From: an uncultured Duodenibacillus sp.
Lineage (GTDB): Bacteria; Pseudomonadota; Gammaproteobacteria; Burkholderiales; Burkholderiaceae_F
Length of the DNA stretch: 44,671 nucleotides
Assembly (NCBI GenBank): GCA_944388865.1
Contig: CALXKM010000005.1
Coordinates: 1-44,671 of the forward strand
Reading direction: 5' to 3'
The notes under the pieces were generated by a model. It saw nothing but the letters and a program-made list of their open reading frames with translations. It searched no databases and was not told where the DNA came from. Shown piece by piece: positions 13,164-40,032 of the stretch (position 1 is the stretch's first letter; every line of letters starts with the position of its first letter). Made by a program: the position numbers and the translations under genes.

Positions 13164-13176
13164 ATCACACGCGGTG

Positions 13177-14162: not shown

Positions 14163-14185
14163 AGCGGTTGAAAAAAAAGTTTTTG

Positions 14186-15235: not shown

Positions 15236-15238
15236 GAT

Positions 15239-18057: not shown

Positions 18058-18062
18058 AACTG

Positions 18063-18089: not shown

Positions 18090-18100
18090 TAAAGACTTTT

Positions 18101-19959: not shown

Positions 19960-20070
19960 GATCAGTATATGAGTGAATAAAAGCTGAACGGGTGCTTACC
20001 ATGTTTTTGCGCATCACCAGTAGATAAAGTGTGCGCAAAGCACGGTATTCGATGTTGGCTACATTTTTGG

Positions 20071-26430: not shown

Positions 26431-26694
26431 CTACTCGTAGTGGCCTTTACACTGATAAATCGTCACAGATTCTTCGTCGAAAGCATAAACCAGGCGGTGT
26501 TCCTGATTAATGCGGCGGCTCCAGAAGCCCGCAAGGTCTTCCTTGAGCGGCTCCGGCTTACCCAAGCCTTCTGCCGGATGGCGAAGCGTATCCTCAATCA
26601 GTGAATTGATTTTTCGAAGGATCTTCTTGTCGTTTGTTTGCCAATCGACATAATCTGCCCAACCGTCAAGATGCCAACGCAACTGCATGCTCAT
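26431..26694 (-). CDS. yoeB: Txe/YoeB-family mRNA endonuclease toxin
   Basis: An 87-aa toxin. YoeB landmarks are all present: WADYVDWQTNDKKILRKINSLI, RHPAEGLGKPEPLK, then GFWSRRINQEHRLVYAF and the terminal CKGHYE (catalytic Glu/Arg/His set). YoeB cuts mRNA in the ribosome A site. The start overlaps the antitoxin stop as ATGA, typical of TA operons. ATG at 26694 or 26688. It forms an addiction module for the element. Confidence 0.93.
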   Translation of the reverse strand: MSMQLRWHLDGWADYVDWQTNDKKILRKINSLIEDTLRHPAEGLGKPEPLKEDLAGFWSRRINQEHRLVYAFDEESVTIYQCKGHYE

Positions 26695-26948
26695 TCCTTG
26701 ATCAAGTCGTGGCTGACGATGTTGCGACCTGCCAGATAATCATCGTGCAGGCGCTTGAGGTGCCGCATATTCGACGGAGAATAAAAGGGATCTGCCTTCG
26801 GTTGGAACGGCAGTCCGTTCTCCGCGACGAGTTGATTGAGAAAAACACGGATGGCGGTTGTGAGATCCATCCCCAGACGATTGCAGACGACCTGAGCATC
26901 GTCACGAAGACTTTGTTCGACGCGCAGTTGAATGGTTGCTGAAGTCAT
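26691..26948 (-). CDS. RelB/DinJ-family antitoxin
   Basis: An 85-aa ribbon-helix-helix antitoxin: SATIQLRVEQSLRDDAQVVCNRLGMDLTTAIRVFLNQLVAENGLPF (given in part), then a toxin-wrapping C-terminus with HLKRLHDDYLAGRNIVSHDLIKE. DinJ more often partners YafQ, and YefM partners YoeB, so this is a mixed DinJ-YoeB pairing, known from other genomes. ATG 26948. Confidence 0.9.
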   Translation of the reverse strand: MTSATIQLRVEQSLRDDAQVVCNRLGMDLTTAIRVFLNQLVAENGLPFQPKADPFYSPSNMRHLKRLHDDYLAGRNIVSHDLIKE

Positions 26949-27010: not shown

Positions 27011-28291
27011 CTACATTGGCTCCACACGCATCAGTACCTTCCCCGTCAACAAGAACCAGACAGCTCCGAAAATGGCCGCGTGGTAGACAAACTCGTTTGA
27101 GCAGCACTGCTCAAGCTCTTCATTGCTCAAATGGGGACAGCCGCCTTTGCAGGAGGAAATCAAGAAGCAATTCTTGCAAACAGGACGCAGGGACCAATGC
27201 GTGAGGTTCGGATTCAAAATCTTCGAATAATTGTCCAGAGAGCCGATTTGCCAGATTGACACCGGCCTGTTGTGGCAGCTGCCGATTTTTCCGTCCAGCG
27301 TCACCGTCAGAGTGTTTTTGCGCATCTCATCGCAACGCCCCAGAATTTCTGAGGCAGGAATTCGGTGAATAAGCCGCTGCATCAAATTTTTGGCCATGTC
27401 GTCCAACGTCGGCCAGAGACCGGCTTGAGTAACAATGGCTTTGAAAATGGAGCTATCGAGGCTTCGAGCAGATTCCTTGTCGAAAGAACAGCCATCCATT
27501 TGGGCTCCGGAATAGCTGACGACGCCTTCAAAGCAAACAACGACGTCTTTGCTGAAGTGCATATCAAAGAAAGCTCTGATCTCTTCAAGATTGCTGTTTT
27601 TCGGGCTGAGAACGCACACAAAAGACATCGGAATGCCGAGCTTCGTGCTGGTTTCCAACAAATACAGCCAGACTTCTTTTACCTCCGGGTCAAACAGCGG
27701 ATCTTCATCATCGCGGAGAGAAAATCCCGGCCCATCGTGCGAAATCGAAATCTGAACCCGATGGAGGTTGAAAAAATCAACCATGTCCTTGGTAAGCAAA
27801 GATCCGTTGGTGATCATGCTGAGTTCGACAGCCTCGCCAAACTCCTCGCGCAAGCGAGGGATCAAAACCCTCAGAGTCTTCCAATAAACCAACGGCTCGC
27901 CACCCCACAGCTCAATGCAGGCATTGGGGGCAAGCTTGATGCCGGAAGCGTGAAATTTTTCAAAGAAGCCGTCAATAGTCTGAGGCCCGGGCACTTTATC
28001 CAAGGACGAGCGAAAAGCAGCCTGCAGGCAGTATTTGCAGTTGTAGTTGCAGGCCATGCCGAGCTGAATGCGAAGCTTTCGGATCAGCCGCCCCTTTTCG
28101 GTAATCGGGTTGTCAGCGCCGAAAATCGAAAAAGAAGGCGCTCTGGGGCGAGCGTAGTCGCTGAATCGTTCCTGAGTGCTGAAATCGATCAGCTCGCCGT
28201 CCTGATCAAAGATTTCACTGGTTTGATTGTCAAACACATAGTTGGAGGTTTCCTTGGTCTTGGGGTCCAGACAGGTGACATTGAAAAACAT
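27011..28291 (-). CDS. Radical SAM/SPASM-type maturase A (fifth gene of the set)
   Basis: A 426-aa radical SAM enzyme. The first ~90 residues form an extra N-terminal region (VTCLDPKTKETSNYVFDNQ…). The [4Fe-4S] loop is QLGMACNYNCKYCLQAA (CxxxCxxC). WGGEPLVYWKTL follows, then the SAM-core strands SMITNGSLLT and ISHDGPGF. The C-terminal auxiliary cluster region has GKIGSCHNRP, RPVCKNCFLISSCKGGCPH and EQCCSNEFVYH. SPASM enzymes modify Cys-containing peptides or proteins. Start ATG 28291 is 2 bp after the stop of gene B; an upstream frame to 28477 is a read-back into B. Closely related to gene C (same N-terminal region, same C-terminal …AVWFLLTG tail). Last gene of the operon. Confidence 0.9.
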   Translation of the reverse strand: MFFNVTCLDPKTKETSNYVFDNQTSEIFDQDGELIDFSTQERFSDYARPRAPSFSIFGADNPITEKGRLIRKLRIQLGMACNYNCKYCLQAAFRSSLDKVPGPQTIDGFFEKFHASGIKLAPNACIELWGGEPLVYWKTLRVLIPRLREEFGEAVELSMITNGSLLTKDMVDFFNLHRVQISISHDGPGFSLRDDEDPLFDPEVKEVWLYLLETSTKLGIPMSFVCVLSPKNSNLEEIRAFFDMHFSKDVVVCFEGVVSYSGAQMDGCSFDKESARSLDSSIFKAIVTQAGLWPTLDDMAKNLMQRLIHRIPASEILGRCDEMRKNTLTVTLDGKIGSCHNRPVSIWQIGSLDNYSKILNPNLTHWSLRPVCKNCFLISSCKGGCPHLSNEELEQCCSNEFVYHAAIFGAVWFLLTGKVLMRVEPM

Positions 28292-28293
28292 GC

Positions 28294-29406
28294 TTAATCC
28301 TCGGTGATTTGCGGCTTCTTGTAAAAACGGATTCCCTGCATCCGTGCGTCTTGAACCGTCTTCACAGATTCCTTCCAGTAGAGCTTTTCGGCCTCGCAGC
28401 AGATTCGCTGTCCCTTGCTCATCTTGTTGAGAGGACAGCCGTGCCGGCACAGGTAGTTGACCTCGCACTGGTCGCATTCGGGCTTCTGCCGGATGGCTTC
28501 TCGAAAGAGCTCATCGTTGCGCAGCAAAAGCGTTTCGTAGGGGTCGGTCACGCGGCCGATGACGCTGGCGCGGTTGTGGCAGGCATGTACGAATCCCAGA
28601 ATGTCCACGTTGATGTCCTTGCGCATAGGCAAGCACTCCGGATACCACTCTGCTGGCAGCCCGAGTTCCTGGCGACGCAGGAAACGCTCAACCGACGTCA
28701 CGCCGCGCTTGAGGCAGTTTCGAGCGGCCGTATTGGTTCTTCCGGATAGGAAGTCCGAAAGGTAGTTCATGCGGCAGCGTCGAAGATTTCTCTGAAAAGC
28801 CTCAAAGTCGTACCCGTACAGGTCGGCATCCATATCAAAGGTGCATTCGAGCGTGTACTGGTAGTGGATGTTGGTTTGCCCTACTTTTTCTCGAACGTAG
28901 CGTTCCAATGCGTAAGGATCGATGTTGTAGGCGTGCGTCGTGGTTCCGATGTCGCGTTTGTGAATCCTTTTGAAGCGCTCGCAGAAAGCCGGATCGTCAA
29001 GCACATTGACGCCGCGGACTTTGGCCGTCAGCGGCCCGTCATTGCTCACCGAATAGGCAATGCCGTGCTCGTTGATCCAATCGACTTTGTCATCGGTAAG
29101 AAGCACGCCGTTGGACATGATCCAGTAGTCGAAAGCCGCATCGCCCATTCGCTCAACAACCTCCTGAATCAGCGGCCAGTAAAGCAGCGGCTCCCCGCCC
29201 CAGAATACGAGCTGAGTACGGGTGTCTCTCTGGCTCATGTGCTCAAGATATGGCCAGACGTCTTTGTCGATGCGCTTGTTGAGCCGGGGCTGCGGAACGT
29301 CGGTTTCATAACAATGGCGGCACTTCAGGTTGCAGGCCGCACCCAGCATCAGATAGATCTTGCGAAGATCATTCTCTGTAAACACTTTTTGTTTTTGGGC
29401 TGTCAT
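28294..29406 (-). CDS. Radical SAM/SPASM-type maturase B (fourth gene)
   Basis: A 370-aa enzyme. Cluster loop LGAACNLKCRHCYETD near residue 20, FWGGEPLLYWPLI, SNGVLLTDDKVDW, VSNDGPLTAKVRGVNVL, then a long insertion and a Cys-rich end: DILGFVHACHN, CDQCEVNYLCRHGCPLNK, ICCEAEKLYW. The middle (…RGVNVLDDPAF…YNIDPYALERYV…YDFEAFQRNLRRC) mirrors gene D (…RGIDVLRNPKI…YNQDPYELIDTM…YDLEAWKRTCKRM), so B and D are paralogues. ATG 29406 overlaps the stop of gene C as ATGA (translational coupling). A longer frame to 29745 is antisense reuse of gene C. Confidence 0.9.
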   Translation of the reverse strand: MTAQKQKVFTENDLRKIYLMLGAACNLKCRHCYETDVPQPRLNKRIDKDVWPYLEHMSQRDTRTQLVFWGGEPLLYWPLIQEVVERMGDAAFDYWIMSNGVLLTDDKVDWINEHGIAYSVSNDGPLTAKVRGVNVLDDPAFCERFKRIHKRDIGTTTHAYNIDPYALERYVREKVGQTNIHYQYTLECTFDMDADLYGYDFEAFQRNLRRCRMNYLSDFLSGRTNTAARNCLKRGVTSVERFLRRQELGLPAEWYPECLPMRKDINVDILGFVHACHNRASVIGRVTDPYETLLLRNDELFREAIRQKPECDQCEVNYLCRHGCPLNKMSKGQRICCEAEKLYWKESVKTVQDARMQGIRFYKKPQITED

Positions 29407-30809
29407 CGCGCGTAAATGCTGAGTCGTTTGTCGAAAGAGAAAATCGGAAAGCTTGGAGTCGGCTTTTGGATAAATGTTCCCGTGAGCAAGTACCAGACGG
29501 CATAAAAAAAGGCGTAATGAAAGGCGAAATCGTTCGTGCAGCATCGAGCTTGCTGCGCGTCCGTGAGATCCGGGCAGCCTCCTTTGCAGGCCCCCAGAAC
29601 AAGGCACTGAGGACATTGGGGACGCACCGACCAATGACTGAAAAGCTTGTTGCTGATGCTTTCGTATTGGGTCAAGTGGCCAATGGAGAAGTCCGGCGCC
29701 GCTCGATTCTGGCAGCTGAGTACGTCTCCCTTGAGGTTGACGCACAACACGCGGGGATCGGCAGCATTGCAGTGGTAGCTAATCTGACTGGAGGGCGTAT
29801 GGTGAACAAATCGCCCCAGCAGATTCAAAATTCGCCGTTCGATTCCAGGCCATAGACCGGGCTCGGTGACAACGGCGCGCAAAACGCTGTCGCGCAAGGT
29901 ATTTGCGGCTTTTTCTCCGAGCAGACAGTCTGACGGCAAGTTGCCGAACTCTGCCGCGGCTCCTCCAAAAGCGAAGCTGACATCCTGAGCAAAGCGTTCC
30001 CAGAAGAATTGTCTCTGCTCAAAAAGATCGCAGTTGAGCGGATTGATGACCGAGAAAAAGGCCATGGGGATTTCTTTTTCCCTGCTCTTTTCAAAGAGGT
30101 ACAGCCACTGTGCACGGATCTCTTCGTTGTCCAGAGGATCTTGCGGATGCCTGAGCGCAAAGCCGGTGCCGTCGTGAGAGATGCTTACCTTAACGCAGTG
30201 TTCAAGCAGAAAATCCGACATCGAGCGGTCAAGCAGTACGCCGTTAGTGAAAAGACTGATGACGGTTTTCTCACCCCAGTGCTCCCGGAGCATCGGAATC
30301 AGTACTTTGAGCAACTTCCCGTAGACCAGAGGCTCTCCGCCCCATAGATCAATGAGGCCGTCGGGGTGCGGAGCAGCACCGGCAGCGTCAAACATCTCAA
30401 AAAAACGGTTGATGTCGTCGATGTTGGGCTGGGCTTCTTGGCGGTTGCGGTCGGCAGCCTGCAGGCAATAGCGACAGCGGTAGTTGCAGGCAAAGCCAAG
30501 CTGGATCTTGAGCTTTGAGATGCGCCTGGATTTGCCCTGCAGCGGGTTGTGACGGCTAAACGGAAAAGCTGTTGGAGGGCGGTTTTCGGCAAGGGAAATA
30601 CAGAGACGCTCTTTGGCATCTTTCGTTTCGGAAGCAACCGCCAGCGTTGACTCATGCCTGTTGAGCCGCGCCGGCAGATCACGCCCAAAGAGCTCCTTGA
30701 ACTCAAGCACTCGGCCGGACTCATCAACAACGCAATGATCCATGTTGTCAAAGACAAACTGACGAGGGCGACCGGTACCGTCCTCAACGCATTCAAGGTG
30801 AAATTTCAT
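29403..30809 (-). CDS. Radical SAM/SPASM-type maturase C (third gene)
   Basis: A 468-aa enzyme, paralogue of gene A with the same layout. N-terminal ~110 residues: LECVEDGTGRPRQFVFDNMD…. Cluster loop QLGFACNYRCRYCLQAA, WGGEPLVYGKLLK, SLFTNGVLLD, ISHDGTGF. Auxiliary cluster region: GDVLSCQNRAAPD, RPQCPQCLVLGACKGGCPDL, RCCTNDFAFHYAFFYAVWYLLTG. ATG 30809 lies 6 bp after gene D's stop. Having two A/C-type and three B/D/E-type enzymes in one operon suggests successive or different modifications, not simple redundancy. Confidence 0.9.
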   Translation of the reverse strand: MKFHLECVEDGTGRPRQFVFDNMDHCVVDESGRVLEFKELFGRDLPARLNRHESTLAVASETKDAKERLCISLAENRPPTAFPFSRHNPLQGKSRRISKLKIQLGFACNYRCRYCLQAADRNRQEAQPNIDDINRFFEMFDAAGAAPHPDGLIDLWGGEPLVYGKLLKVLIPMLREHWGEKTVISLFTNGVLLDRSMSDFLLEHCVKVSISHDGTGFALRHPQDPLDNEEIRAQWLYLFEKSREKEIPMAFFSVINPLNCDLFEQRQFFWERFAQDVSFAFGGAAAEFGNLPSDCLLGEKAANTLRDSVLRAVVTEPGLWPGIERRILNLLGRFVHHTPSSQISYHCNAADPRVLCVNLKGDVLSCQNRAAPDFSIGHLTQYESISNKLFSHWSVRPQCPQCLVLGACKGGCPDLTDAQQARCCTNDFAFHYAFFYAVWYLLTGTFIQKPTPSFPIFSFDKRLSIYAR

Positions 30810-30815
30810 AGGGAA

Positions 30816-32657
30816 TTACTCGCGGTTTGCCGATGACAGAAGATGAATTTGGATCTTCTTTTTTTGGTCCATCTTTCGCAGAAGATCCGGTGCCGACAGC
30901 TGTTGGCCGTCTTCCGGAAGAGCAGCCTGCAGAGCCGCCCGCAGCGGGTGATCGTCTGCGATTCCGCTATCGAGCACCACCTGTGTGAGGGCATCGAGCT
31001 GCGCGCCGATGCTGCCTTGATGCTCGTGCCAGTCGGTGTTGGCAATAAAGTCCTTTCTTGCCTGCATCCGGGCAAAGTATTGCTTGACGTTTTCACTGCA
31101 GCGACAGAACGCAGCGATGCTGTTTTCGTTTTCTTCAAGCAGCACGTTTTCAACTCCGGCAATGTCGTTGATCCGGCCGCGAAGGAAAATAAAGACCTCT
31201 TTGTCCGTGACGACGACTCGCCCGATTGAACCGTTTTGATCGGCAAAAACGTGACGCAGCGCAGCATTTCGGTTGTCGTAGCTGTGTTCTTCGTCACGAA
31301 CGTCTGTGCGCTGCAGCGTCGGTCGATACGAAATCGCCTGATAGCTCCACGGGACAAGCGCAAGCTCTACCTGCTGCTCGACGCGCCGGTTCAGCCAGGA
31401 GACTTTGTAGGTAAGCCGCAGCTTGTCTTCGGAAACATCAAGGGCATATTCAAAATCGCCCATCTTTCCATACGGAATCGCCTTATTTGCAGTCGCCTGG
31501 GCGGAGCGTCCGGAAGGCAACTGCTTCGGACGATGAAACACAACAACGCGCTTGCCGCTTTGAATCTGACTTTCGGAAGTTCCGAGTTTGTAAGCCTCAA
31601 ACCGCTTCATCACATCCCAGACGGAAGCAAAGAAAATCTTCTGAAACTCGCACTGCTTGCGAGCCTGCTCTGAGGCGGGCTCCAGAGGACACTTGCCGCG
31701 GCAAAACGCAAACCACTGACAGTCGGGACATTTGTCCTTCTTCTGCGCTGCCAACAAAGCGTCATGAATGCTGTCGGAAGCGCTGATGATGGCGTCGAGA
31801 TCATCGCTTACCGTGCCGAGCTTTCCTATGGCGTTGTCGCAGAACCAGACGTTTGCATCGAGGTCAAGATAAAGGTTGTTGCCGTTGATGCCGCACTGAG
31901 CGGTCACGTGCTGCCCTTCAACATAGTTGTAAAAGGAGTTGATGTATCCCCAGTAAAAAGCGGATTCCCAATGCTGCTTTTTGGGTTCTCCGACGAACTT
32001 GAATTGTTCCAAGGCGGCATCTGCCATGCGCTTGCAGGTACGTTTCCAAGCTTCAAGGTCATAGTCGAGGAGATCGGCCGGCATACCCTCATCAGCCGTG
32101 AGGAACATCATCTTGAACCGCATTTTCCGGCCGAAGACCTTTTCCATCGTGTCGATGAGCTCATAAGGATCCTGGTTGTACGGCGTGAGCACAGTCTCAA
32201 TGCTGGCTCGACGGACTTTCTTGTAAAGCTCGACTATCTTTGGATTGCGAAGAACATCAATGCCGCGGGTGGCCTCGGTCCATTTTCCGTCGTAGCTCAA
32301 AAGCACGCGAATGTCGTGCTCGTTGCAGAAGGCTACGATTTCCTCAGTGAGCAGCGATCCGTTGGTGACAATCGACCATTTGAGGTTCGGCCGGTCAACC
32401 CTTGCGACAACTTCCTTGATGGCATCAAAGTAAAGCAGCGGTTCTCCGCCGAAGAAATTCACTTTGAGTTCGCCCATTATCCCTTGCTGTCGCGGCTGAC
32501 GCTCCGCAAGCATCTGCAGGAAGTCGATGAGCTGAGAAGAAGGACTTTTGGTGAGATGCACCGGAGGATTGCATTTTTGTATGCAATATCTGCATTTGAA
32601 ATTACAAGCCTTTCCAAGAATGATGTAGACCTTTTGAACGTCAACGTAGGAATTCAT
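30816..32657 (-). CDS. Radical SAM/SPASM-type maturase D with an extra C-terminal domain (second gene)
   Basis: A 613-aa enzyme. Radical SAM part at residues ~1-390: LGKACNFKCRYCIQKC, FFGGEPLLYFDAI, VTNGSLLTEE, LSYDGKWTEATRG. Auxiliary-cluster part: AQCGINGNNLYLDLDANVWFCDNAIG, CPDCQWFAFCRGKCPLEPA, KQCEFQ. From ~400 to the end there is an additional domain (VVVFHRPKQ…, VVVTDKEVFIFLRGRIN, SIAAFCRCSENVKQYF, IGAQLDALTQVVLDSGI). This domain is homologous to the stand-alone protein at 37043-37864. It may bind the substrate or bring partners together. ATG 32657 overlaps the stop of gene E as ATGA. Confidence 0.9.
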   Translation of the reverse strand: MNSYVDVQKVYIILGKACNFKCRYCIQKCNPPVHLTKSPSSQLIDFLQMLAERQPRQQGIMGELKVNFFGGEPLLYFDAIKEVVARVDRPNLKWSIVTNGSLLTEEIVAFCNEHDIRVLLSYDGKWTEATRGIDVLRNPKIVELYKKVRRASIETVLTPYNQDPYELIDTMEKVFGRKMRFKMMFLTADEGMPADLLDYDLEAWKRTCKRMADAALEQFKFVGEPKKQHWESAFYWGYINSFYNYVEGQHVTAQCGINGNNLYLDLDANVWFCDNAIGKLGTVSDDLDAIISASDSIHDALLAAQKKDKCPDCQWFAFCRGKCPLEPASEQARKQCEFQKIFFASVWDVMKRFEAYKLGTSESQIQSGKRVVVFHRPKQLPSGRSAQATANKAIPYGKMGDFEYALDVSEDKLRLTYKVSWLNRRVEQQVELALVPWSYQAISYRPTLQRTDVRDEEHSYDNRNAALRHVFADQNGSIGRVVVTDKEVFIFLRGRINDIAGVENVLLEENENSIAAFCRCSENVKQYFARMQARKDFIANTDWHEHQGSIGAQLDALTQVVLDSGIADDHPLRAALQAALPEDGQQLSAPDLLRKMDQKKKIQIHLLSSANRE

Positions 32658-33652
32658 AGTACGAGCCCCGGAATTTGCATCATCAGTTGGTAGACGGCCG
32701 ACATCTGCTTGGCCAAATAGCAGTCGACGTCGTGCGTGTTGGAGAGGTAGCAGCCGCCTCGGCACTCCTCAAAAATCGGGCATGTCCGGCATTCTTCAGT
32801 TCGAATGAAGCGCTCAAAATCGACGGTCGAATCTGCGTGGATGGGAATGACTTTTTGGAAAATATTCCCGCAGACGTTTGTGGCGTCGAAGTTGTGATGG
32901 CAGCGGTAGATGTTGCCGTGCAGGTCAATGGACAAGCGGTCGTCGCGCACGCATTTGCCGCCTGTTCCCTTGGCCACTTCCTTTCGACGGTCGGACAGAA
33001 GCTGAGAGCATTGCCAACGAGCCCAGTCGTCTCCTTTGTGGGCTAAAGCGATGACATCGAACACAAGGTGCTCGACCAGTGCATCCACGTCTTCCTTGCT
33101 GAGGTAGCACTCCGGAGAACATCCGTCGTTTGCTCTTAGAAAGTGAAGGTAGAGCCTCGGCTTGAAGCCGTAACGGTCTTCCAGTTCATAGAACCGTTTG
33201 CGCAGAGCCCAGAACTCAATTTGTCCGTGCTCGATGATGGAGCTGATCGAAAAGTGATCCAGACGAAAAATCCGATCAAACTGTTCGTCTGTGAAGTCCC
33301 AATCGTGAGCAGATACGGTAGTCCAGACTTGGTGCGTATTAGCGTATTCGACGTATTCGTCGGTAAGGCGCCTGCCGTGTGTGGTAATGAAAAAGCCTTC
33401 TTCGGGAGCTCGATCCAGTTCCGTGAGGCTATCCATGATGCGGCGGATTTTTTCCCAATACAGCATGGGTTCTCCGCCCCAGAAGATCAGTCGGGCCGGA
33501 CGCTTGTCCGTTAAGTAGTCGGCAAACTTACGGCAGAAATCGTCAAGATCGGTGTGACGGTTGGCCGGAACATCGGTGCCGGTCTGCAGGCAGTACGGAC
33601 AATTTCTGTCGCAGGCGTTGCCAAGCAGTAGGTTTATCGTTTTGAGTTTCAT
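32654..33652 (-). CDS. Radical SAM/SPASM-type maturase E (first gene of the operon)
   Basis: A 332-aa enzyme. Cluster loop LGNACDRNCPYCLQTG at ~9-24, LIFWGGEPMLYWEKIRR, ITTHGRRLTDEYVEY, VSAHDWDFTDE. Auxiliary region: GKCVRDDRLSIDLHGNIYRCHHNF, ECRTCPIFEECRGGCYLSNTHDVDCYLAK. Smallest member of the set, with no N- or C-terminal extension. ATG 33652 taken as start; an in-frame TTG at 33661 also exists and neither has a strong ribosome site. Preceded by a regulatory dyad like those of the transfer operons. Confidence 0.9.
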   Translation of the reverse strand: MKLKTINLLLGNACDRNCPYCLQTGTDVPANRHTDLDDFCRKFADYLTDKRPARLIFWGGEPMLYWEKIRRIMDSLTELDRAPEEGFFITTHGRRLTDEYVEYANTHQVWTTVSAHDWDFTDEQFDRIFRLDHFSISSIIEHGQIEFWALRKRFYELEDRYGFKPRLYLHFLRANDGCSPECYLSKEDVDALVEHLVFDVIALAHKGDDWARWQCSQLLSDRRKEVAKGTGGKCVRDDRLSIDLHGNIYRCHHNFDATNVCGNIFQKVIPIHADSTVDFERFIRTEECRTCPIFEECRGGCYLSNTHDVDCYLAKQMSAVYQLMMQIPGLVL

Positions 33653-33731
33653 GAGATTCAAAATTCACCGCAAAAGCGGCGAGAAAGTGGGCTTGAATCT
33701 CAAGATTAGATGCGGGTCGAACGCGCACTGG

Positions 33732-33765
33732 CACTTTAGAAAGCAAGTTTTGCTACGTTGGCTCG
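33732..33765. promoter_or_regulatory. Transfer-regulon box, copy 4 (near-match) upstream of the radical SAM operon
   Basis: AAGCAAGTTTTGCT at 33741-33754 has the dyad AAGCA-N5-TGCT with one end base changed. Toward the gene it continues AAAGTGCCA, matching AAACTGCCA in the 15.6-kb copy, and CCAA on the other side is also shared. It lies 89 bp before the first radical SAM gene, the same distance as the traN box from traN. Confidence 0.55.
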
Positions 33766-33785
33766 TTTTAAGGGAGCGGATTTGA

Positions 33786-33828
33786 AAATAAAAACCCGCA
33801 GAAGATTTGAAATGCTCTCCTGCGGGCC
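33786..33828 (-). terminator. Rho-independent terminator of the autotransporter gene
   Basis: Minus-strand stem CCCGCAGGAGA / TCTTCTGCGGG followed by TTTTTATTTTC, starting ~25 bp after the autotransporter stop. It separates that gene from the radical SAM operon, which must then have its own promoter within 33653-33785. Confidence 0.85.
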
Positions 33829-33852
33829 GATTACTTCGAGGTCACGTACAAG

Positions 33853-35883
33853 TTAGAACATGTACTTTGCAGCGATGTTGAATCGATAGTCGGTATCGAT
33901 ATCGCCGCCAACGGTCTTGCTCAGGTCAATGGCAAGCATCGATGAATCCGTCATGCGGTATGTGCCGCCAACGCCGAATTCACCCCAGGTACCGGCAAGT
34001 TCCTGAGAGAAATTGCGCCACTGGCTGCCGGCAGACAGTGCACGGGCTCTGCCTTCAACATCGCCCTTGAAGTCATGAGCAACGAAGGCACGGCCATAAA
34101 CCGAGGCACGATCCTGTGCAAAGTTGCCGCCGAACATCACGCCTGCGCGACCGATCAAGCTTTCGACCGAATCCAGATCGACTTCACGGTTGCTGGTAGT
34201 GGTCGAGTCGCTATCGAGATAGCTGTAAACCAAGCCGATCTGCGGCTCAATGAACAGGGTTTCACCGCTGAAGCGATGGCCGGCTTCCACACCGAAGATG
34301 TAGCCCATCTGATCAACGTCACCGGAGTCAGCAACACCGGTGGTGGTTGCAAAATCAAAGTCGGACTGAACCTGGCCGATCTTGGCCATAACATCAAGGA
34401 AGCAGCCGTTGTCGTTCATGTACGTAGCGTACAGGCCGAGGGTGTACTTCTTGTTGTCGGTCTGGCCGGCTTCAAAATCGCCGTCACCGTCGCCGTAGGC
34501 AAACGAAGCGCCAAGAACCCAAGAGGACTGGCCGACAGGCATATCAAAGCCAAGTTCGACGGTATTCATCTTGAGTTCACCCCAGGAGTCATCCTTGGAA
34601 AGCTTGCCGCCGTTGTAGCGAACCCATGCGCCGAGATCCGTCGGACGGGTACGAATAGCGCCCATGCGGTCGGTGAGCGTGGACAATTCCGTTCTCCAAG
34701 CCATGGCATTCAAAGCGGCCAATTCCTTGGTCGAATCAGCAACGGTCGAAGTTGTGAACGTCGTGGAAGCATTGCCGTTGGCGTCCACGTTATAGGTGAT
34801 TTCGCCCGTGGTTACCGTTTCTTCAATCTTGCCGCTATAAGCACCCTGCGTATCCGGAGTGTCGCCTTCAACGGAGACATTCTGGTTGAAGAATGTTGCA
34901 ACGTCGCCAGCAGAACCGATGGAGTCGGCAACATTGCCGCCGAACGTGACCGACACTGCGTCGCTCTCACCGACGCCTGCTACATCAACCACCGGAACAG
35001 TGCCGTTGCCTGCGTGGTCGGAGTAGATCGACAGATTTCCGTTAACAGCATCAGCCTGCATAGTGCGGCCGTTGCCGATGAGGCGCATTTCAGACGTACC
35101 GGTCGCGGAGATTTGAGCAAAACTGTAGGACGTCTGATCGCCGGTGAATTCCACATCGCTATCCGTAAGGGTAAGCGTGCCGATTCTTTCGCCAACCAGC
35201 TCAAGCTGTGTATTCGTGTTATCAGCATTAAGAGCAATGGTCAGATCAGTTTGCGCCCCCATTTCTACCGCACCCACAACGTGGGAGTCACCCGAAAGCG
35301 TCACTGCTGTACCATCCCGAAGCGCAACAATTGCTTTGGCACCATCTTCGGCAATGATAGTGCTGGTATTGGTAATTGACGCAGTACCCTCTGCGCCGGT
35401 ATCTGCCCATACGAGAATACCGTTGGCATTAGTGCCCTTGACGTAAATATTGCCGTTATTGATAACGGTATCAGTAGCATTGGCTCCCATCGCCGAAACT
35501 TGAACACCGTTCTGTGCATCAACGAAAATAGAGCCGTTATTGGTTGCGGTGAGGTTGTTGTGATAAGCCGCGGTCATGCCGACCATAGAGTAGTCAGACG
35601 AGCCGCCTTGAACATAAATTAGGCCATTGTTAACAACGTTATCGGTCGTTGAATGAAGCCCGTTGACGGTATAGTTCCCGGTAGCTGCCGCGATTAAATG
35701 CAATGTTTCGTTTGCACCCAAACTAGCAGACTGGTGCAGAACGCCGCCACCGTTGGGAGCTCCGTCGCCTTCATAATCCCAGTCCTGATTTGACGTCACT
35801 GAGTCCCAGGATGTCCAATCCTGAGCAGCTGCAGAACCAACGAAGGCACCAAGAATGGCCAAGGCTATCGTTGTTTTTTTCAT
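33853..35883 (-). CDS. Autotransporter (type Va) with short passenger
   Basis: A 676-aa surface protein. Signal peptide MKKTTIALAILGAFVGSAAAQ. The passenger (~22-390) is rich in Asn/Thr/Gly with repeated VxNNGxIYVxG-type strands, as expected for a beta helix. A C-terminal ~280-residue beta-barrel starts near LAALNAMAWRTELSTLTDRM and ends with the outer-membrane signature …YRFNIAAKYMF. Likely an adhesin or surface display protein; no protease triad is evident. It has its own terminator and a promoter region containing a G9 tract. Located between the two halves of the Hint/radical SAM cargo. Confidence 0.92.
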   Translation of the reverse strand: MKKTTIALAILGAFVGSAAAQDWTSWDSVTSNQDWDYEGDGAPNGGGVLHQSASLGANETLHLIAAATGNYTVNGLHSTTDNVVNNGLIYVQGGSSDYSMVGMTAAYHNNLTATNNGSIFVDAQNGVQVSAMGANATDTVINNGNIYVKGTNANGILVWADTGAEGTASITNTSTIIAEDGAKAIVALRDGTAVTLSGDSHVVGAVEMGAQTDLTIALNADNTNTQLELVGERIGTLTLTDSDVEFTGDQTSYSFAQISATGTSEMRLIGNGRTMQADAVNGNLSIYSDHAGNGTVPVVDVAGVGESDAVSVTFGGNVADSIGSAGDVATFFNQNVSVEGDTPDTQGAYSGKIEETVTTGEITYNVDANGNASTTFTTSTVADSTKELAALNAMAWRTELSTLTDRMGAIRTRPTDLGAWVRYNGGKLSKDDSWGELKMNTVELGFDMPVGQSSWVLGASFAYGDGDGDFEAGQTDNKKYTLGLYATYMNDNGCFLDVMAKIGQVQSDFDFATTTGVADSGDVDQMGYIFGVEAGHRFSGETLFIEPQIGLVYSYLDSDSTTTSNREVDLDSVESLIGRAGVMFGGNFAQDRASVYGRAFVAHDFKGDVEGRARALSAGSQWRNFSQELAGTWGEFGVGGTYRMTDSSMLAIDLSKTVGGDIDTDYRFNIAAKYMF

Positions 35884-35996
35884 CTTTGATTGTCCAATTC
35901 GAATTGATGGTTTGCGAAATTGCCTAAAGGGCTTTGCTGAGAGGAGAGATCACCGCCAAATGTTTTGGGTAGCGATACCCTCCATGGCTCACGGTA

Positions 35997-36023
35997 CCCC
36001 CCCCCTCGGAAACCTTTTGTCAA
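35997..36023 (-). promoter_or_regulatory. Putative phase-variable promoter with G9 tract
   Basis: On the coding (minus) strand TTGACA (36023-36018) is followed by 12 bases, then nine consecutive G (36005-35997), then TACCGT. The homopolymer therefore lies in what would be the -35/-10 spacer, ~115 bp upstream of the autotransporter start. Spacer length as read (21) is longer than optimal. The remainder of 35884-36141 has no gene. Confidence 0.5.
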
Positions 36024-36141
36024 TCAGGGTGTTGTTGTTTTTTCATGGGGGTTTTCCCTTGGCGATTACACTGGTCTTAATTGGCTCTTGTGTTGTGAAA
36101 CTTCACACCCCAATACATTGTCTGCAGAATCTGTGTCCGAA

Positions 36142-37059
36142 CTAAATTTGTGAAGAAACTCGAAGAGAGCATTCGGCAATGCTTGTCTGGAACATGTTGG
36201 CCACTTTCACACGCAAGGTTTCGCCATCTTCAAGACCTAATGCCATGACTCGGAAATGCCCTACGCCATTGACGACGGAAAGACGCCGATGAGGCGCGTA
36301 GCCGTCAACGGGCTCGATCCGGTAACCGTCCCAGGAGACGTCAAAAGCTCTTTGCCCCGTGCGGCCATCCACAACCTCGAAGATGAAATCTGCCCAGCCA
36401 TCAGGCCGCACAACCGGGGCTTTCGAAATCAATCTGTAGTCGAGATTGAGCCACTTAGAGTTGCCGCCGCGCATGACATCGACTGCGTTCCAAGGCTCTC
36501 CCAGATCTTTCAGGTTCGTAAAAAGCTTTGTAGTTGGAGCCGTCGTGATGGAACGGGAGCACTCCGTGAGCGGTGCATCGGAGTTTCGGACCCACAAGTC
36601 AAAGCACCAAATGCCGCCCAAATGCCGAATCAGCTCGGCCGTGTTTCGCTTGCTGAGGCTGGTGAGCGCTCCCTTGGGGTCGATCTGAAGCCCTCTGGCC
36701 GGATCGTAGTGAAACACCAGATGCACTCCCGGCTTCCACCAGTGCTTATAAGGAGATTCGCGCTTATCGAGCACGGCCTCAGCGTAAATGGCGTAGCGCT
36801 CTCCGTGCTCATCCAGAAATACCTGCCGAGCCTCGGAAATCGGCACAAATGGAGCCGCTAGTCGCTCTGTTGTCAGAAGCTCTGTGATCGGACGCTCTTG
36901 GACGTTTGCAGGAAGTTCGCCGCCCCGCAAACACGTCAGAAACCGCAGAGCGGCCCGGTTTTCGTCAATCGCAATAGCCATCGCTTCAACAGGAAGCGAA
37001 TCTGCCAAAACATGTCTGAAAGCTGTCAAGGCACTGCTCCGGTCAGTAGGAAGAATCAA
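36142..37059 (-). CDS. Unknown protein of the Hint/radical SAM cargo, ~305 aa
   Basis: Unrecognised. Soluble and without a signal peptide. The N-terminal part is helical (TAFRHVLADSLPVEAMAIAID); then ERYAIYAEAVLDKR, HWWKPGVHLVFHYDPARG, IWCFDLWVRN; then a beta-rich C-terminal third (ADFIFEVVDGRTGQRAFDVSWDGYRIE, HFRVMALGLEDGETLRVKV). The start is uncertain: TTG 37059 overlaps the preceding gene by 17 bp, while the first ATG is at 36981. It is the last gene of the traN-hint-hint-accessory series before the autotransporter promoter. Could be a processing partner or immunity-like factor; nothing in the sequence decides. Confidence 0.6.
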   Translation of the reverse strand: MILPTDRSSALTAFRHVLADSLPVEAMAIAIDENRAALRFLTCLRGGELPANVQERPITELLTTERLAAPFVPISEARQVFLDEHGERYAIYAEAVLDKRESPYKHWWKPGVHLVFHYDPARGLQIDPKGALTSLSKRNTAELIRHLGGIWCFDLWVRNSDAPLTECSRSITTAPTTKLFTNLKDLGEPWNAVDVMRGGNSKWLNLDYRLISKAPVVRPDGWADFIFEVVDGRTGQRAFDVSWDGYRIEPVDGYAPHRRLSVVNGVGHFRVMALGLEDGETLRVKVANMFQTSIAECSLRVSSQI

Positions 37060-37864
37060 CGCCGCGCACGAGCTGCTTGTACTTCAAGCGTTCCTGCAGC
37101 TTGTCGAGAGTGACGTTCTTTTGAATGGCAAATTTCCTTGATGCTTCCAGGAACTTGAGCAGGTTTTTATCTCGGACAATTCCTGCCGAAAGGATGATTT
37201 CCGTGAGCACATCGACCTGAGCTTCCAAATAACCGATCTGCTTGTAAAGATCCACTGCTCCGAGCTTCTTTCTGCGCTCATTGATGTCTTCAATGAAGCG
37301 TTTAACCTTGGATGAGTAGTGCCGGAAAGCAGCAGCGGAATCCTGCTCATCGTTGACGATGATGTTTTTGAAGCCTTGGATATTGGGAATCCGACCGCGA
37401 AGATACAAAAGTGTTTCCGTGTCGGTGACAACCATTTTGGCAATGAAGTTCTGGGCTGAATTTTCAACGTGGCTTCGTGTTGGATTGAAGGCAGTTGAAT
37501 TGACAACTTCGATCTTGCCGGTGCTCGGCTGATAAAACACATTGAACATCGACCACGGCTGTTGAGGAATGCGGAAGGTTTCCTTTACCGGGATCAGCCC
37601 CAGATACTTTGCCTCAAGCGTGACGCGAACGCCTTTTTCAACCTCCTTGACCTGGTACTTGAATTCCGACAGGCCGTCCGGGCGTTCTGGTTTCGTCTGC
37701 TGATTTGAAGACGCTTCAGGCAGGGGCGGGGCGATTACTTCGAAGCCGGCTGGAGGCGTGGGTGAGGAGATCTTAGGAGCCTTTGATGGTGCGTCTGTTT
37801 TATTTGCAAGGTTTGCACTGTTTCCACGCTTGGTGTGGGAGCGATGAAAAATGATGAGGGACAC
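37043..37864 (-). CDS. Stand-alone homologue of the maturase D C-terminal domain
   Basis: A 273-aa protein. After a Pro/Ala/Ser-rich linker (to ~75) the body matches the C-terminal extension of maturase D block by block. VSLIIFHRSHTK matches VVVFHRPKQ; FKYQVKEVEKGVRVTLEAKYL matches FEYALDVSEDKLRLTYKVSWL. VVTDTETLLYLRGRIPNIQGFKN matches VVTDKEVFIFLRGRINDIAGVEN; SAAAFRHYSSKVKRFI matches SIAAFCRCSENVKQYF. LEAQVDVLTEIILSAGIVRDKNLL matches IGAQLDALTQVVLDSGIADDHPLR. GTG 37864 was chosen since AAGGAG lies 6 bases upstream. It lies 14 bp after Hint protein 1. No enzymatic motif; probably a binding/scaffold subunit. Confidence 0.75.
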   Translation of the reverse strand: MSLIIFHRSHTKRGNSANLANKTDAPSKAPKISSPTPPAGFEVIAPPLPEASSNQQTKPERPDGLSEFKYQVKEVEKGVRVTLEAKYLGLIPVKETFRIPQQPWSMFNVFYQPSTGKIEVVNSTAFNPTRSHVENSAQNFIAKMVVTDTETLLYLRGRIPNIQGFKNIIVNDEQDSAAAFRHYSSKVKRFIEDINERRKKLGAVDLYKQIGYLEAQVDVLTEIILSAGIVRDKNLLKFLEASRKFAIQKNVTLDKLQERLKYKQLVRGVDSSY

Positions 37865-37878
37865 GGAAATCTCCTTAA

Positions 37879-38919
37879 TTAGAGTTGGCGGCAAAGCAAA
37901 ACATTCAAGCCGTCTTTGGTCATTGCCCAGCCCCCTGATTCGACGATGGGGCTGTAGGTTCGAGTGTCGCTGGATAGGTTGCTCACGGGAAGGAAGGCTT
38001 TTTCATCAACCCGAATCAGTTTGTCCAGTGCCGGATTGGCGTAGCTGCCGATTACTCCATTAGGAGCATTCAGGAGATCTCTGCTTCGCAGGTAATCGGT
38101 TTCGGATCTCACCGTTGGCATTCCCTTGTGAAGGATGATGTGTTCTTGGGTGAGCCAGGTGTCGGAGTGCCCGGCAACGGTTACGGCCTTGCGGTACCCC
38201 AGCGTGTTTATGGCAACAGCGACAACTTTGTGTATGCCGTCAATACCGATCAACATGTCGCCCGGCACGATGGATTCAACGGGTTTAGGCCCGGACGTGG
38301 TCATCAGCTCAGCCTTAATGAAACAGCCGCTGTCATCGCCGCAGTTGCAGCAGTTGCAGTTGCAATTGCAGTTGTATTTTTTCTGCCAATATCCGACCTT
38401 GATTGCACGGCCATAGGCGTCTCTTTGAACTGCGGTGTAGTTGGATTTGAGACTCCCGCTTCCGGTTGTAACCAGCACATCCGTTCCGTACAAAATGGCC
38501 GCACCGATGGATGGCATAGAACTTGTCACCTCTGTCTTCAAGATATAGTCAACGTAGTCGCCGTTGAGAACCGGAATTTTTGTGGCGGAGATGTTCTTGT
38601 TTAGCCGCAGTTGCTTGCCGTTCCACTTGGTGGAATTGACTGCATCGCCACCATCGACCAGGGCGAGTGCTCGCGGAGGTACGTTTTGCGGAACTTCGAT
38701 GCAGTCGCAAGCCTGCGTGCCGTCGCCGCGCGGCATGCCGCCGTTGGGGCAGATTGCGTTGCAGTCGGGAGCCGGCAGACACGAGCAGGAAGCATCTGCG
38801 GCCACCGCCGGCCGCGAAGCCGTTGCACCGGCAAGCAATGCGCCGAGCAAAGCCTTTCTGCGCGAAAGCTTGAATCTTCCGGCGGAAGAGTTTTTTGAGG
38901 CAATGATGTTTTCTTGCAT
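37879..38919 (-). CDS. Tat-like exported protein with Cys-Asn tract and Hint domain (copy 1)
   Basis: 346 aa. (1) Twin-arginine-like signal LSRRKALLGALLAG…AVAA (~18-41). (2) Cys-rich start CSCLPAPDCNAICPNGG…ACDC. (3) A ~110-residue domain with DYVDYILKTEV and GAAILYGTDVLVTTGSGSL. (4) YNCNCNCNCCNCGDDSG at ~190-206. (5) A Hint (hedgehog/intein) domain from the next residue, Cys-Phe: GCFIKAELMTTSGPKPVESI, VPGDMLIGIDG, LTQEHII, ending LLCRQL. Hint domains cleave or activate the bond before their first Cys, so the N-terminal product would end in the Cys-Asn tract. There is no C-terminal His-Asn and no extein, so it is not a splicing intein. ATG 38919. Confidence 0.8.
   Translation of the reverse strand: MQENIIASKNSSAGRFKLSRRKALLGALLAGATASRPAVAADASCSCLPAPDCNAICPNGGMPRGDGTQACDCIEVPQNVPPRALALVDGGDAVNSTKWNGKQLRLNKNISATKIPVLNGDYVDYILKTEVTSSMPSIGAAILYGTDVLVTTGSGSLKSNYTAVQRDAYGRAIKVGYWQKKYNCNCNCNCCNCGDDSGCFIKAELMTTSGPKPVESIVPGDMLIGIDGIHKVVAVAINTLGYRKAVTVAGHSDTWLTQEHIILHKGMPTVRSETDYLRSRDLLNAPNGVIGSYANPALDKLIRVDEKAFLPVSNLSSDTRTYSPIVESGGWAMTKDGLNVLLCRQL
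38341..38374 (-). repeat. AACTGC hexamer repeats coding the Cys-Asn tract (copy 1)
   Basis: The tract is built from AAC-TGC codon pairs; only one AAT-type variation breaks it. Such 6-bp repeats can expand or contract in frame by slippage, changing the number of Cys-Asn units. Confidence 0.7.
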
Positions 38920-38970
38920 GACAACGTAAGCCTGAAAGTTTGTTTGTTTGGTCGTTGTGCTTTGGATGGA

Positions 38971-40032
38971 TCAATCGTCGATTTTTCGACAAAGCAAAAC
39001 GGATAGGCCGCTTTCTGTCATTGCCCAGCATCCCCCGATGACAATGGGGCTGTAGGTTGGCGTTTCAGGCGGAAGGTCTTCTTCGATTTCAAAGTAAGTC
39101 GGATCAGTTGCGACGACGGAGTCCAGGTTTTCAGAGACATAAACTCCCGTCACGCCATTGGCTGCTTCTATGGGAAGCTTGTTGCGCTCATAGTTTTCTT
39201 GGCTGGTGACAATGAGCTTGTGACCATTGAGGATGATGTGCTCTTCCGTCAAGAGAACATCAGGATGGCCTTTCGGAATAATCGCTTTGCGTTTTCCAAG
39301 CGTATTGACGGCCACACCGACGACCGGATGGATGCCGTCAATGCCAATTAACTTATCGCCGGGAACAATATCCTTGACGGATTTGAACCCGTCCTCCGTC
39401 ATCAGTTTGGCACTGATAAAGCAGCCGCCGTCATCGCCGCAGTTGCAGCAATTGCAGTTGCAATTGCAGTTGTATTTTTTCTGCCAATATCCGACCTTGA
39501 TGACACGGCCATAGTCGTCTCTTTGAACCGCAGTGTAGTTGGATTTGAGACTCCCGCTTCCGGTTGTAACCAGCACATCCGTTCCGTACAAAATGGCCGC
39601 ACCGATGGATGGCAGTGAACCAGTTATTTCCGACTTCAAGATGTAGTCGACGTAATCGCCATCAAAGACAAGAATCTTGTCAGCCGAAGTATTCTTGTTG
39701 AGTCGCAGCTGCTTGCCTCCCCATTTGGTGGCATTGACCGCATCGCCGCCATCGACCAGAGCAAGCGCTCGCGGAGGTACGTTTTGCGGAACTTCAATGC
39801 AGTCGCAAGCCTGCGTGCCGTCGCCGCGCGGCGTGCCGCCGTTGGGACAGATCGCATTGCAGTCGGGAGCCGGCAGACACGAGCATGAAGCATCTGCGGC
39901 CATCGCCGGCCGCGAAGCCGTTGCGCCGGCAAGCAGTGCGCCGAGCAAAGCCTGCCGTCTCGAAAGTTTCTTTACGTTGGGTGATTGAATTTCCGTCATG
40001 TGTTTTGCGGCGATTGCGTTGGCCGCCTCCAT
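38971..40032 (-). CDS. Tat-like exported protein with Cys-Asn tract and Hint domain (copy 2)
   Basis: 353 aa, paralogue of copy 1 and 51 bp upstream of it. The signal (LSRRQALLGALLAG…AMAA), Cys-rich start, middle domain and YNCNCNCNCCNCGDDGG tract are almost identical to copy 1. The Hint domain (GCFISAKLMTEDGFKSVKDI, VPGDKLIGIDGIHPV, LLTEEHIILNG) is clearly diverged and ends CRKIDD. Start ATG 40032 or 39999; neither has a strong ribosome site and the signal is complete in both. It follows traN by 103 bp on the same strand, so it may be read with traN. Substrate role for the radical SAM enzymes is inference from the tract and the neighbourhood. Confidence 0.8.
   Translation of the reverse strand: MEAANAIAAKHMTEIQSPNVKKLSRRQALLGALLAGATASRPAMAADASCSCLPAPDCNAICPNGGTPRGDGTQACDCIEVPQNVPPRALALVDGGDAVNATKWGGKQLRLNKNTSADKILVFDGDYVDYILKSEITGSLPSIGAAILYGTDVLVTTGSGSLKSNYTAVQRDDYGRVIKVGYWQKKYNCNCNCNCCNCGDDGGCFISAKLMTEDGFKSVKDIVPGDKLIGIDGIHPVVGVAVNTLGKRKAIIPKGHPDVLLTEEHIILNGHKLIVTSQENYERNKLPIEAANGVTGVYVSENLDSVVATDPTYFEIEEDLPPETPTYSPIVIGGCWAMTESGLSVLLCRKIDD
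39439..39472 (-). repeat. AACTGC hexamer repeats coding the Cys-Asn tract (copy 2)
   Basis: Same organisation as the repeat in copy 1 with one silent difference (AATTGC position shifted). The coding DNA from the tract to the signal peptide is a long direct repeat between the two genes. Confidence 0.7.

What the first reader, a model, noticed from the sequence alone, without database searches (positions are those of the whole stretch)
27011..40032. Candidate undescribed system: five radical SAM maturases with two Hint-domain Cys-Asn-tract proteins on a conjugative element
Seen: five contiguous radical SAM genes, each with CxxxCxxC and C-terminal Cys clusters, sit near two exported paralogues. 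Each paralogue carries a Cys-Asn repeat tract directly before a Hint domain. Known: SPASM-type radical SAM enzymes install thioether or other crosslinks on Cys-containing peptides, and Hint domains cleave or transfer at their first Cys. Inference: the enzymes modify the tract, Tat exports the folded protein, and the Hint domain releases it or attaches it to a surface acceptor. I do not recognise a described RiPP or maturation family that combines these parts.
Basis: partly seen in the sequence, partly recalled or inferred. Interest (0 to 1): 0.92.

Follow-up and report, generated by a model that had tools for sequence, protein, structure and literature searches.

The report
Phage-derived cysteine-tail maturation cassette
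A conjugative element in a bacterium carries enzymes and exported proteins that belong to a widespread, apparently undescribed phage system in which tail-fibre tips ending in Cys-Asn repeats are paired with their own radical SAM enzymes.

Summary
Five open radical SAM/SPASM genes lie end to end (R1-R5, 33652-27011) near two 71% identical proteins (H1, H2) carrying YNCNCNCNCCNCG just before a Hint domain, on an element with F-type transfer genes. New here: this is one version of a large phage system. Prophages of the same bacterial family, Achromobacter phages and many IMG/VR contigs carry the same rSAM family beside fibre-like proteins that END in a Cys-Asn tract. In DNA-pattern searches 37 of 38 C-terminal CNCNCNC proteins with at least 3 kb downstream have the rSAM (0 of 43 pattern hits outside ORFs), as do 12 of 13 CxCxC-Hint proteins with at least 1.4 kb downstream. 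In reverse, 79 of 90 rSAM loci have a tract protein on the same strand, 5 of 90 on the other. Some prophage tract proteins stop at CGDD, where the window's Hint begins, so the Hint probably cleaves to expose the same tip. Best explanation: cytoplasmic SPASM enzymes crosslink the tract (Cys-Asn thioethers likeliest), Tat exports the protein, the Hint trims it, and the hardened tip serves a surface or mating adhesin. Chemistry, export and function are inferred. Eight paper searches found nothing linking these parts.

The parts
40136..43741 (-). TraN, mating-pair stabilisation protein of the F-type T4SS; ends 103 bases upstream of H1
   Evidence: PF06986 E 1e-32; gap
38971..40032 (-). H1, 353 aa: Tat-like signal, Cys-rich module, middle domain, Cys-Asn tract, Hint domain
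39895..39969 (-). H1 twin-arginine-type signal (KLSRRQALLGALLAGATASRPAMAA)
   Evidence: sequence by eye; Pfam TAT_signal E 0.46, below cut-off
39436..39471 (-). H1 Cys-Asn tract NCNCNCNCCNCG (residues 188-199)
38974..39423 (-). H1 Hint domain, residues 204-353; C204, D226, H265
   Evidence: alignment with tract-Hint proteins; model confident from residue 202; inteins and BIL domains top Foldseek hits
37879..38919 (-). H2, 346 aa paralogue of H1
   Evidence: 71% identity
38338..38373 (-). H2 Cys-Asn tract (residues 183-194)
37882..38325 (-). H2 Hint domain from C199
   Evidence: alignment only
37043..37894 (-). X283, homologous to the C-terminal domain of R2; weakly similar to the protein that follows tract-Hint fibres in Achromobacter-type phages
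   Evidence: 29% over 201 aa, E 8e-25; phage-only profile hits it best in the window, E 4e-4
36142..37059 (-). X305, accessory protein with a C-terminal Ig-like domain, encoded beside many tract fibres
   Evidence: 48% to prophage homologue, E 5e-99; model pLDDT 83; fold search
33853..35883 (-). autotransporter that separates X305 from R1 here; probably an insertion, not part of the core
   Evidence: PF03797 E 1e-40; X305 and R1 overlap or adjoin in L038, L039, L040, L101
32654..33652 (-). R1, rSAM/SPASM
   Evidence: PF04055; TIGR04085; 50% to prophage R1
30816..32657 (-). R2, rSAM/SPASM with X283-like C-terminal domain
29403..30809 (-). R3, rSAM/SPASM, R5 family
28294..29406 (-). R4, rSAM/SPASM, R2 family
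27011..28291 (-). R5, rSAM/SPASM, family associated with tract fibres

Best explanation
The cassette is a conjugative-element version of a phage tail-fibre-tip maturation system. In the cytoplasm the SPASM radical SAM enzymes modify the Cys-Asn tract of H1 and H2, most likely by joining Cys sulfur to a side-chain carbon of neighbouring Asn/Asp (ranthipeptide-type thioethers), which would turn the repeat into a rigid, protease-resistant tip. X305 and X283 would be dedicated partners that fold or present the substrate. The folded, modified proteins leave by Tat. The Hint domain performs an N-S shift at G203-C204 (H1) and is cleaved off, leaving the tract at the C terminus as in the phage proteins. 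The tip would then serve as a receptor-binding or adhesive end on the cell surface, plausibly helping TraN-dependent mating. Shown: gene content, homology, Hint fold, co-occurrence of tract and enzymes. Inferred: chemistry, Tat export, cleavage product, roles of X305 and X283, role in mating.
For: Homology and order: window X305 and R1 are 48% and 50% identical to genes of prophage G049:C47, where they follow Cys-tract genes; tract gene-X305-R1-R5 order recurs in L038, L040 and L101 and L182; R3/R5 nest with prophage R5 proteins (97/97). Forward test: 37 of 38 C-terminal CNCNCNC proteins with >=3 kb downstream have the rSAM, against 0 of 43 pattern hits outside ORFs; the 37 enzymes fall into 22 single-linkage clusters at 70% identity. 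Hint form: 12 of 13 with >=1.4 kb downstream. Reverse: 79 of 90 same strand, 5 of 90 opposite. Of 9 tract proteins tested, 5 match PHROG tail or tail-fibre families clearly and 1 weakly; Mtd_N and Peptidase_S74 in one each. Two of 7 prophage tract proteins end CGDDSS and CGDDN and one CNDDNCGE; H1/H2 read CGDDxG and then the Hint Cys. Hint fold. PapB is the top NCBIfam model for all five window enzymes. Asn or Asp fills 275 of 359 CxC gaps.
Against: No biochemical data. PapB similarity is far below its cut-off (at best 87.9 of 340 bits), other SPASM models score close, and nif11 is the top model for L101 R5, so the chemistry is weakly pointed to. The Asn count comes from tails picked by a rule that asks for one NCxC, so it is somewhat biased. 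11 of 90 rSAM loci show no tract by that rule. 13 of 57 tract proteins have no rSAM in the fetched stretch, 12 of them with under 3 kb downstream. H1/H2 have no detectable relatives outside this genome, so their middle domain is not shown to be fibre-like. Four of 7 prophage tract proteins end unlike CGDD. X283 to phage-protein homology is marginal. Tat signal not above cut-off. An autotransporter interrupts the cassette.
Confidence: 0.66

Rival explanations
1. The Cys-Asn tract is a metal or Fe-S binding or disulfide tip, and the rSAM enzymes insert sulfur, assemble a cofactor, or act on something else.
For: Alternating Cys could bind soft metals; the enzyme family's chemistry is not established.
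Against: SPASM enzymes of known function act on peptides or proteins (general knowledge); Asn/Asp dominate the CxC gaps (275 of 359, with the bias told above), which a plain metal site would not need.
Confidence: 0.15
2. The Hint domain does not just hydrolyse: it passes the modified tract to a nucleophile (lipid, peptidoglycan or another protein), hedgehog-style, to anchor it on the surface.
For: H1/H2 lack a splicing C terminus (they end LLCRKIDD and LLCRQL); I saw no other anchor in H1/H2.
Against: The 57 tract proteins have no Hint and end at or within 31 residues of the tract, so exposure of the tract is the shared outcome.
Confidence: 0.3
3. The tract is a RiPP core: it is cut out and exported as a small peptide, for example an antimicrobial.
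For: rSAM/SPASM plus a Cys-rich tract resembles RiPP maturation.
Against: Tracts lie at the end of proteins of about 70 to 900 aa (stop-to-stop lengths), several of them tail fibres, and none of the cassette proteins scanned matched a leader peptidase or peptide exporter family.
Confidence: 0.07
4. The cassette is inert cargo: a phage tail module stranded on the element.
For: H1/H2 found in no other genome searched; an autotransporter sits inside.
Against: All genes are open; H1/H2 are duplicated with identical tracts and carry a Tat-type signal and Cys-rich module that I did not see in the phage proteins looked at; R3, R4 and R5 have relatives in the same order in a sister species (L037).
Confidence: 0.1

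Closest known systems
PapB / ranthipeptide maturases (NF047865)
   Same: SPASM rSAM; top NCBIfam model for all five window enzymes; the start of the abstract of PMC9413430 (listing only) says PapB forms Cys/Asp or Cys/Glu thioethers, close to what a Cys-Asn/Asp tract would need
   Different: 87.9 bits at best against a cut-off of 340; substrates here are large fibre-like or exported proteins, not small precursors
QhpD (quinohemoprotein amine dehydrogenase maturase, TIGR03906)
   Same: SPASM rSAM that modifies a protein subunit at Cys and acidic residues (chemistry recalled)
   Different: At best 73 bits against 453; I saw no amine dehydrogenase gene here
Achromobacter phage 2-1 gp27-gp28-gp29, and phage JWF
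   Same: tail fibre with an NCNCDCNCSC tract directly before a Hint domain, a small protein overlapping its end, then an R5-type rSAM
   Different: one rSAM, no Tat signal seen; annotated as hypothetical, Hom_end-associated Hint family, radical SAM or sulfatase-maturating proteins
PHROG 1802 (phage radical SAM, no function)
   Same: matches R1, R2 and R3, the three rSAMs given to that scan, R2 at E 4.5e-40
   Different: no substrate or function assigned
His-Xaa-Ser system (HxsABCD)
   Same: two rSAM enzymes with a repeat-bearing target (recalled)
   Different: HxsB model 54.7 bits at best against 370; different repeat
Bacterial intein-like (BIL) and hedgehog-type Hint domains
   Same: fold, first Cys and a conserved His
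   Different: placed directly after an rSAM-associated Cys-Asn tract

Membership tests
Radical SAM superfamily | PF04055 above gathering score and CxxxCxxC | tested here: met
   36.9, 41.7, 32.8, 38.3, 30.1 bits against 29.5; one CxxxCxxC in each
SPASM subfamily | TIGR04085 above 27 bits | tested here: met
   R1 40.3, R2 36.2, R3 33.1 bits; R4 C-terminal part 32.9 bits; R5 matches at E<=1e-5, bits not shown
PapB ranthipeptide maturase | NF047865 above 340 bits | tested here: not met
   60.1-87.9 bits
PapB ranthipeptide maturase | Cys to Asp/Glu side-chain thioether formed | not testable with these tools
   needs MS
HxsB | TIGR03978 above 370 bits | tested here: not met
   31.9-54.7 bits
Any NCBIfam rSAM equivalog | score above the curated cut-off | tested here: not met
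   none among the best 25 rows shown for each of the five
Hint superfamily | Hint fold, N-terminal Cys, conserved Asp and His | tested here: met
   C204, F205, D226, H265 invariant in 9 aligned proteins; Foldseek best hit gp41-1 intein E 7e-5, TMt 0.66; no Pfam Hint match
Intein (splicing) | C-terminal His-Asn followed by Cys/Ser/Thr | tested here: not met
   H1 ends ...LLCRKIDD, H2 ...LLCRQL
Phage tract-fibre/rSAM system (defined here) | Cys-Asn tract protein near R5-family rSAM, with X305 | tested here: met
   window has tract, R5 family and X305
Phage tract-fibre/rSAM system (defined here) | tract protein is a tail fibre | tested here: inconclusive
   no PHROG or Pfam fibre hit for H1/H2
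F-type conjugative element | TraN, TraU, TrbC | tested here: met

The most novel reading that the evidence does not exclude
Many tailed phages finish the tips of their tail fibres with a dedicated radical-SAM modification of C-terminal Cys-Asn repeats, a class of virion maturation not yet described, sometimes unmasked by a self-cleaving Hint domain; at least one conjugative element has taken over this module to build exported, chemically hardened adhesins for mating.
Probability: 0.55. Interest if true: 0.94.

Novelty: new variant of a known kind. Interest (0 to 1): 0.88.

Why it matters
It gives a testable substrate to a large set of unassigned phage radical SAM genes (PHROG 1802 has no function) and suggests that host-recognition fibres can be chemically crosslinked after translation, which would change how receptor-binding tips are modelled and annotated. 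The Achromobacter phages offer a small three-gene unit for a test. For conjugation it suggests that adhesin chemistry can move between phage tails and mating machinery. It could also give new enzymes that make Cys-Asn/Asp crosslinks in long repeats.

Tried and rejected
Tried without result: relatives of H1/H2 in 67 family genomes, 399 order genomes (two weak hits, E 2e-4 to the signal region and 1e-3, taken as chance and not followed), genome contigs, IMG/VR, plasmids, phages; the exact H1 tract pattern in IMG/VR. X283 in 399 order genomes: only this genome. R2 in plasmids: 21 records with distant rSAM proteins, none covering 80% of it.

Rejected: a RiPP precursor reading (tract sits on larger, often fibre-like proteins); viperin-like defence (34.6-63.8 bits against a cut-off of 180); scorpion-toxin hits of the H1 Cys-rich module (E 0.06 or worse), taken as Cys chance. 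Homology of that module with the C terminus of TraN is suggestive only (27 of 500 shuffles as good, 41 of 500 against all of TraN).

Rules and controls that did not go as planned. First reverse rule (CxCxCxC ORF on the rSAM strand): 28 of 47 strong genome loci, 47 of 78 viral, 3 of 32 weak genome loci. A laxer rule (any Cys-rich tail) gave 43 of 47, 64 of 78 and 19 of 32, too unspecific to use. One search showed shorter real tracts that the first rule missed, so one search used a third rule, fixed after seeing these data: 32 of 47, 57 of 78, 6 of 32. I meant the weak loci (L227-L258) as a control, but their hits look like real tract proteins, so they are no clean control; I rely on the opposite strand (0 of 32 and 5 of 58 with room) and on pattern hits outside ORFs. 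By eye the third rule still misses at least L192 (tract-Hint) and L216.

The one of 38 without rSAM is L163, a 64-residue ORF that is probably not a gene. Of the 20 other ORFs 1 has the rSAM, 0 of the 6 with room. The 1.4 kb limit for the Hint set was chosen after seeing the data; of the 17 loci, 16 have the ORF and 12 the rSAM. Some contigs occur in more than one search. In the reverse test 78 of the 80 viral loci listed were examined (L071, L092 had been fetched earlier) and all 79 genome loci, split by list order into 47 and 32; 90 of the 125 strong loci have >=3 kb upstream. The X283 hits came from a profile that holds the Achromobacter protein and are not independent.

Papers: ten searches; eight bear on novelty, two on background. 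Listings were partial (15 of 30; 10 of 18; 10 of 14; 6 of 192). Passages read: PMC7029224, PMC6591296, PMC3556154. All others: listing and start of abstract only. In none did I see rSAM linked to a tail-fibre Cys tract; most subscription papers and preprints are not in the library.
Full report
What is in the window. On the minus strand, downstream of TraN (PF06986), lie H1 and H2, then X283 and X305 (each overlapping the previous gene), an autotransporter, and five rSAM genes R1-R5. All five pass Pfam Radical_SAM, each has one CxxxCxxC and a C-terminal Cys cluster, R1-R4 pass the SPASM model and R5 matches it, and none passes a curated NCBIfam rSAM equivalog among the 25 rows shown for each. 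R3 and R5 are 40% identical, R2 and R4 30%, and R2 carries an extra domain homologous to X283. TraU, TrbC and an S26 peptidase elsewhere in the window mark an F-type transfer system. The window is contig 5 of a 2.49 Mb genome. A genome of the same family, G046, is probably Mesosutterella porci (contig G046:C6 and L223 have the same length, 55441, and the same match), which NCBI places in Sutterellaceae; the window's own genus was not named.

H1 and H2. They share a Tat-like signal, a small Cys-rich module, a middle domain without relatives, the tract YNCNCNCNCCNCGDD and a C-terminal domain that begins with Cys-Phe. Pfam and NCBIfam see no Hint, but an alignment with seven tract-Hint proteins from phages and bacteria keeps C204, F205, D226, V237 and H265 invariant, the model of H1 is confident only from residue 202 on (residues 1-201 below 50), and the best PDB matches are inteins and bacterial intein-like domains (gp41-1 intein E 7e-5). 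The C terminus lacks the His-Asn of splicing inteins, so cleavage rather than splicing is expected.

Where the module comes from. PHROG 1802 led to rSAM clusters in same-family genomes. In G043:C1 (L040) baseplate hub and wedge genes (PHROG E 1e-55 or better) and fibre-like genes are followed by three small proteins ending in Cys tracts, then X305, R1 and R5. In G049:C47 (L038) a tail-fibre gene is followed by three such proteins, X305, R1, R5 and an endolysin. In G049:C135 (L039), beside an endolysin and DNA ligase of phage type, a 409 aa protein ends RYKANCNCDCRCDCDCNDDNCGE and is followed by X305 and R1, with R5 3.6 kb upstream of it. Window X305 and R1 are 48% and 50% identical to those of L038 (E 5e-99, 1e-119), and R3/R5 nest with prophage R5 proteins. 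A sister species (G014, L037) holds relatives of R3, R4 and R5 in the same order on a 4.7 kb contig. Across 67 family genomes X305 is found in 4, the Cys-[Asn/Asp] pattern in 4, H1 in 1, while the TraN domain is found in 26: the cassette looks accessory.

Tract and enzyme belong together. Profile HMMs built from the window, the prophages, L037 and Achromobacter phage 2-1 were then applied. Of 57 proteins that end at or near the tract, 44 have an rSAM of this family in the fetched stretch; of the 38 with at least 3 kb downstream, 37 do. In 43 loci the pattern lies outside any ORF of 40 aa and none has any hit; of 20 other ORFs 1 has (L078, which looks like a real tract protein), and 0 of the 6 with room. 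The 37 enzymes form 31 clusters at 90%, 22 at 70% and 7 at 50% identity. A scan for a tract fused to a Hint start (CxCxCFPAGT) gave 17 loci; 16 are in ORFs, 12 have the rSAM, and of 13 with at least 1.4 kb downstream 12 do. Starting instead from an alignment of 15 enzymes, 79 of 90 loci with 3 kb upstream have a tract protein on the same strand and 5 of 90 on the other. Records with both include Limnohabitans, Magnetospirillum, Thalassovita, Bradyrhizobium, Halomonas and Paraburkholderia, and MAGs labelled Prosthecobacter, Bdellovibrio and Mailhella.

The tract proteins are mostly tail fibres. Of nine tested, PHROG tail or tail-fibre families match L101 (E 2e-13), L059 (3e-6), L040 (9e-6), L054 (9e-7), L226 (2e-25) and, weakly, L227 (0.025); L192 had no match, L039 and L323 matched only families without function. 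Mtd_N matches L040 and Peptidase_S74 L226. Achromobacter phage 2-1 shows the Hint form in a named phage: gp27 fibre-tract-Hint, gp28, gp29 rSAM, and JWF shares all three. Hint-like proteins of Providencia phage PSTNGR1 and Vibrio phage 13VV501A turned up by similarity to the end of gp27; the 16 kb fetched around each show no rSAM of this family and no CxCxC on the strand of that protein, in keeping with the tract, not the Hint, calling for the enzyme.

How it probably works. Of seven prophage tract proteins two end ...DCGDDSS and ...QCGDDN and one ...CNDDNCGE; the other four end in other Cys-rich ways. H1 and H2 read ...CNCGDDxG and then the Hint Cys, and the Mailhella protein L227 reads ...CDCGDN and then the Hint Cys. 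Hydrolysis at that Cys would give the same kind of end. The residues between cysteines are Asn 230, Asp 45, Ala 41 of 359 (the rule asks for one NCxC, so Asn is somewhat favoured). PapB, a former of Cys-Asp/Glu thioethers (start of the abstract of PMC9413430), is the top NCBIfam model for all five window enzymes but far below its cut-off, and other SPASM models score close. I therefore propose Cys-Asn/Asp side-chain thioethers as the likeliest chemistry, at modest confidence. Tat export of a folded, crosslinked protein is consistent with cytoplasmic SPASM chemistry but rests on the signal by eye. X305 has an Ig-like C-terminal domain and is often the gene next to the tract gene (28 of 57 tract loci carry it); X283 follows H2 as gp28 follows gp27, with marginal homology. 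The position beside TraN suggests a role in mating; nothing here tests it.

Novelty. Eight paper searches (listings partly seen) found no account linking radical SAM genes to tail-fibre Cys tracts; one paper notes radical SAM gene cassettes in the host-recognition cluster of pelagimyophages (PMC7029224, two passages). I rate the system a new variant of SPASM-enzyme/Cys-substrate pairing, with a substrate class, phage tail-fibre tips, that is new as far as I could find.

Noticed in passing
window 35997-36005 (-): A run of nine G lies about 115 bases upstream of the autotransporter start, a possible phase-variation tract.
   Followed up: no
window 33785-33826 (-): A GC-rich inverted repeat plus T run follows the autotransporter (by eye; the scan does not list it), so R1-R5 may be a separate transcript.
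   Followed up: partly
window 40241-40309 and 39817-39885 (-): The C terminus of TraN (CECMIGACDDTCKYGGYPTSQG) resembles the Cys-rich module of H1/H2 (CSCLPAPDCNAICPNGGTPRGDG); 27 of 500 shuffles score as well.
   Followed up: partly
window 6752-15289 (-): Toprim primase, VWA/CobT-like, DUF3150, YqaJ exonuclease, RecT and AAA genes, a set that recalls SXT/R391 or IncA/C-type elements (recalled).
   Followed up: no
window 18001-20000: G+C drops to 0.35-0.43 against 0.50-0.56 elsewhere, with an ORF (18865-19959) without Pfam match.
   Followed up: no
window 26431-26948 (-): A YoeB-type toxin (PF06769 E 7e-36) and RelB-type antitoxin (PF04221 E 9e-6) lie directly downstream of R5.
   Followed up: partly
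L037: A sister species carries relatives of R3, R4 and R5 in the same order on a 4.7 kb contig; its substrate gene was not found.
   Followed up: partly
L039:13322-15748: An anaerobic ribonucleotide reductase gene (PF13597 E 3e-166, with a weak intein-splicing match, E 0.002) lies between the tract gene and the R5 gene of a prophage.
   Followed up: partly
L040:8642-10029; L038:6568-7964; L231:4568-5873: A second tract type, HC(T/S)YC(T/S)YC repeats with Cys every third residue, sometimes followed by a CNC tail, occurs with the same or related enzymes.
   Followed up: partly
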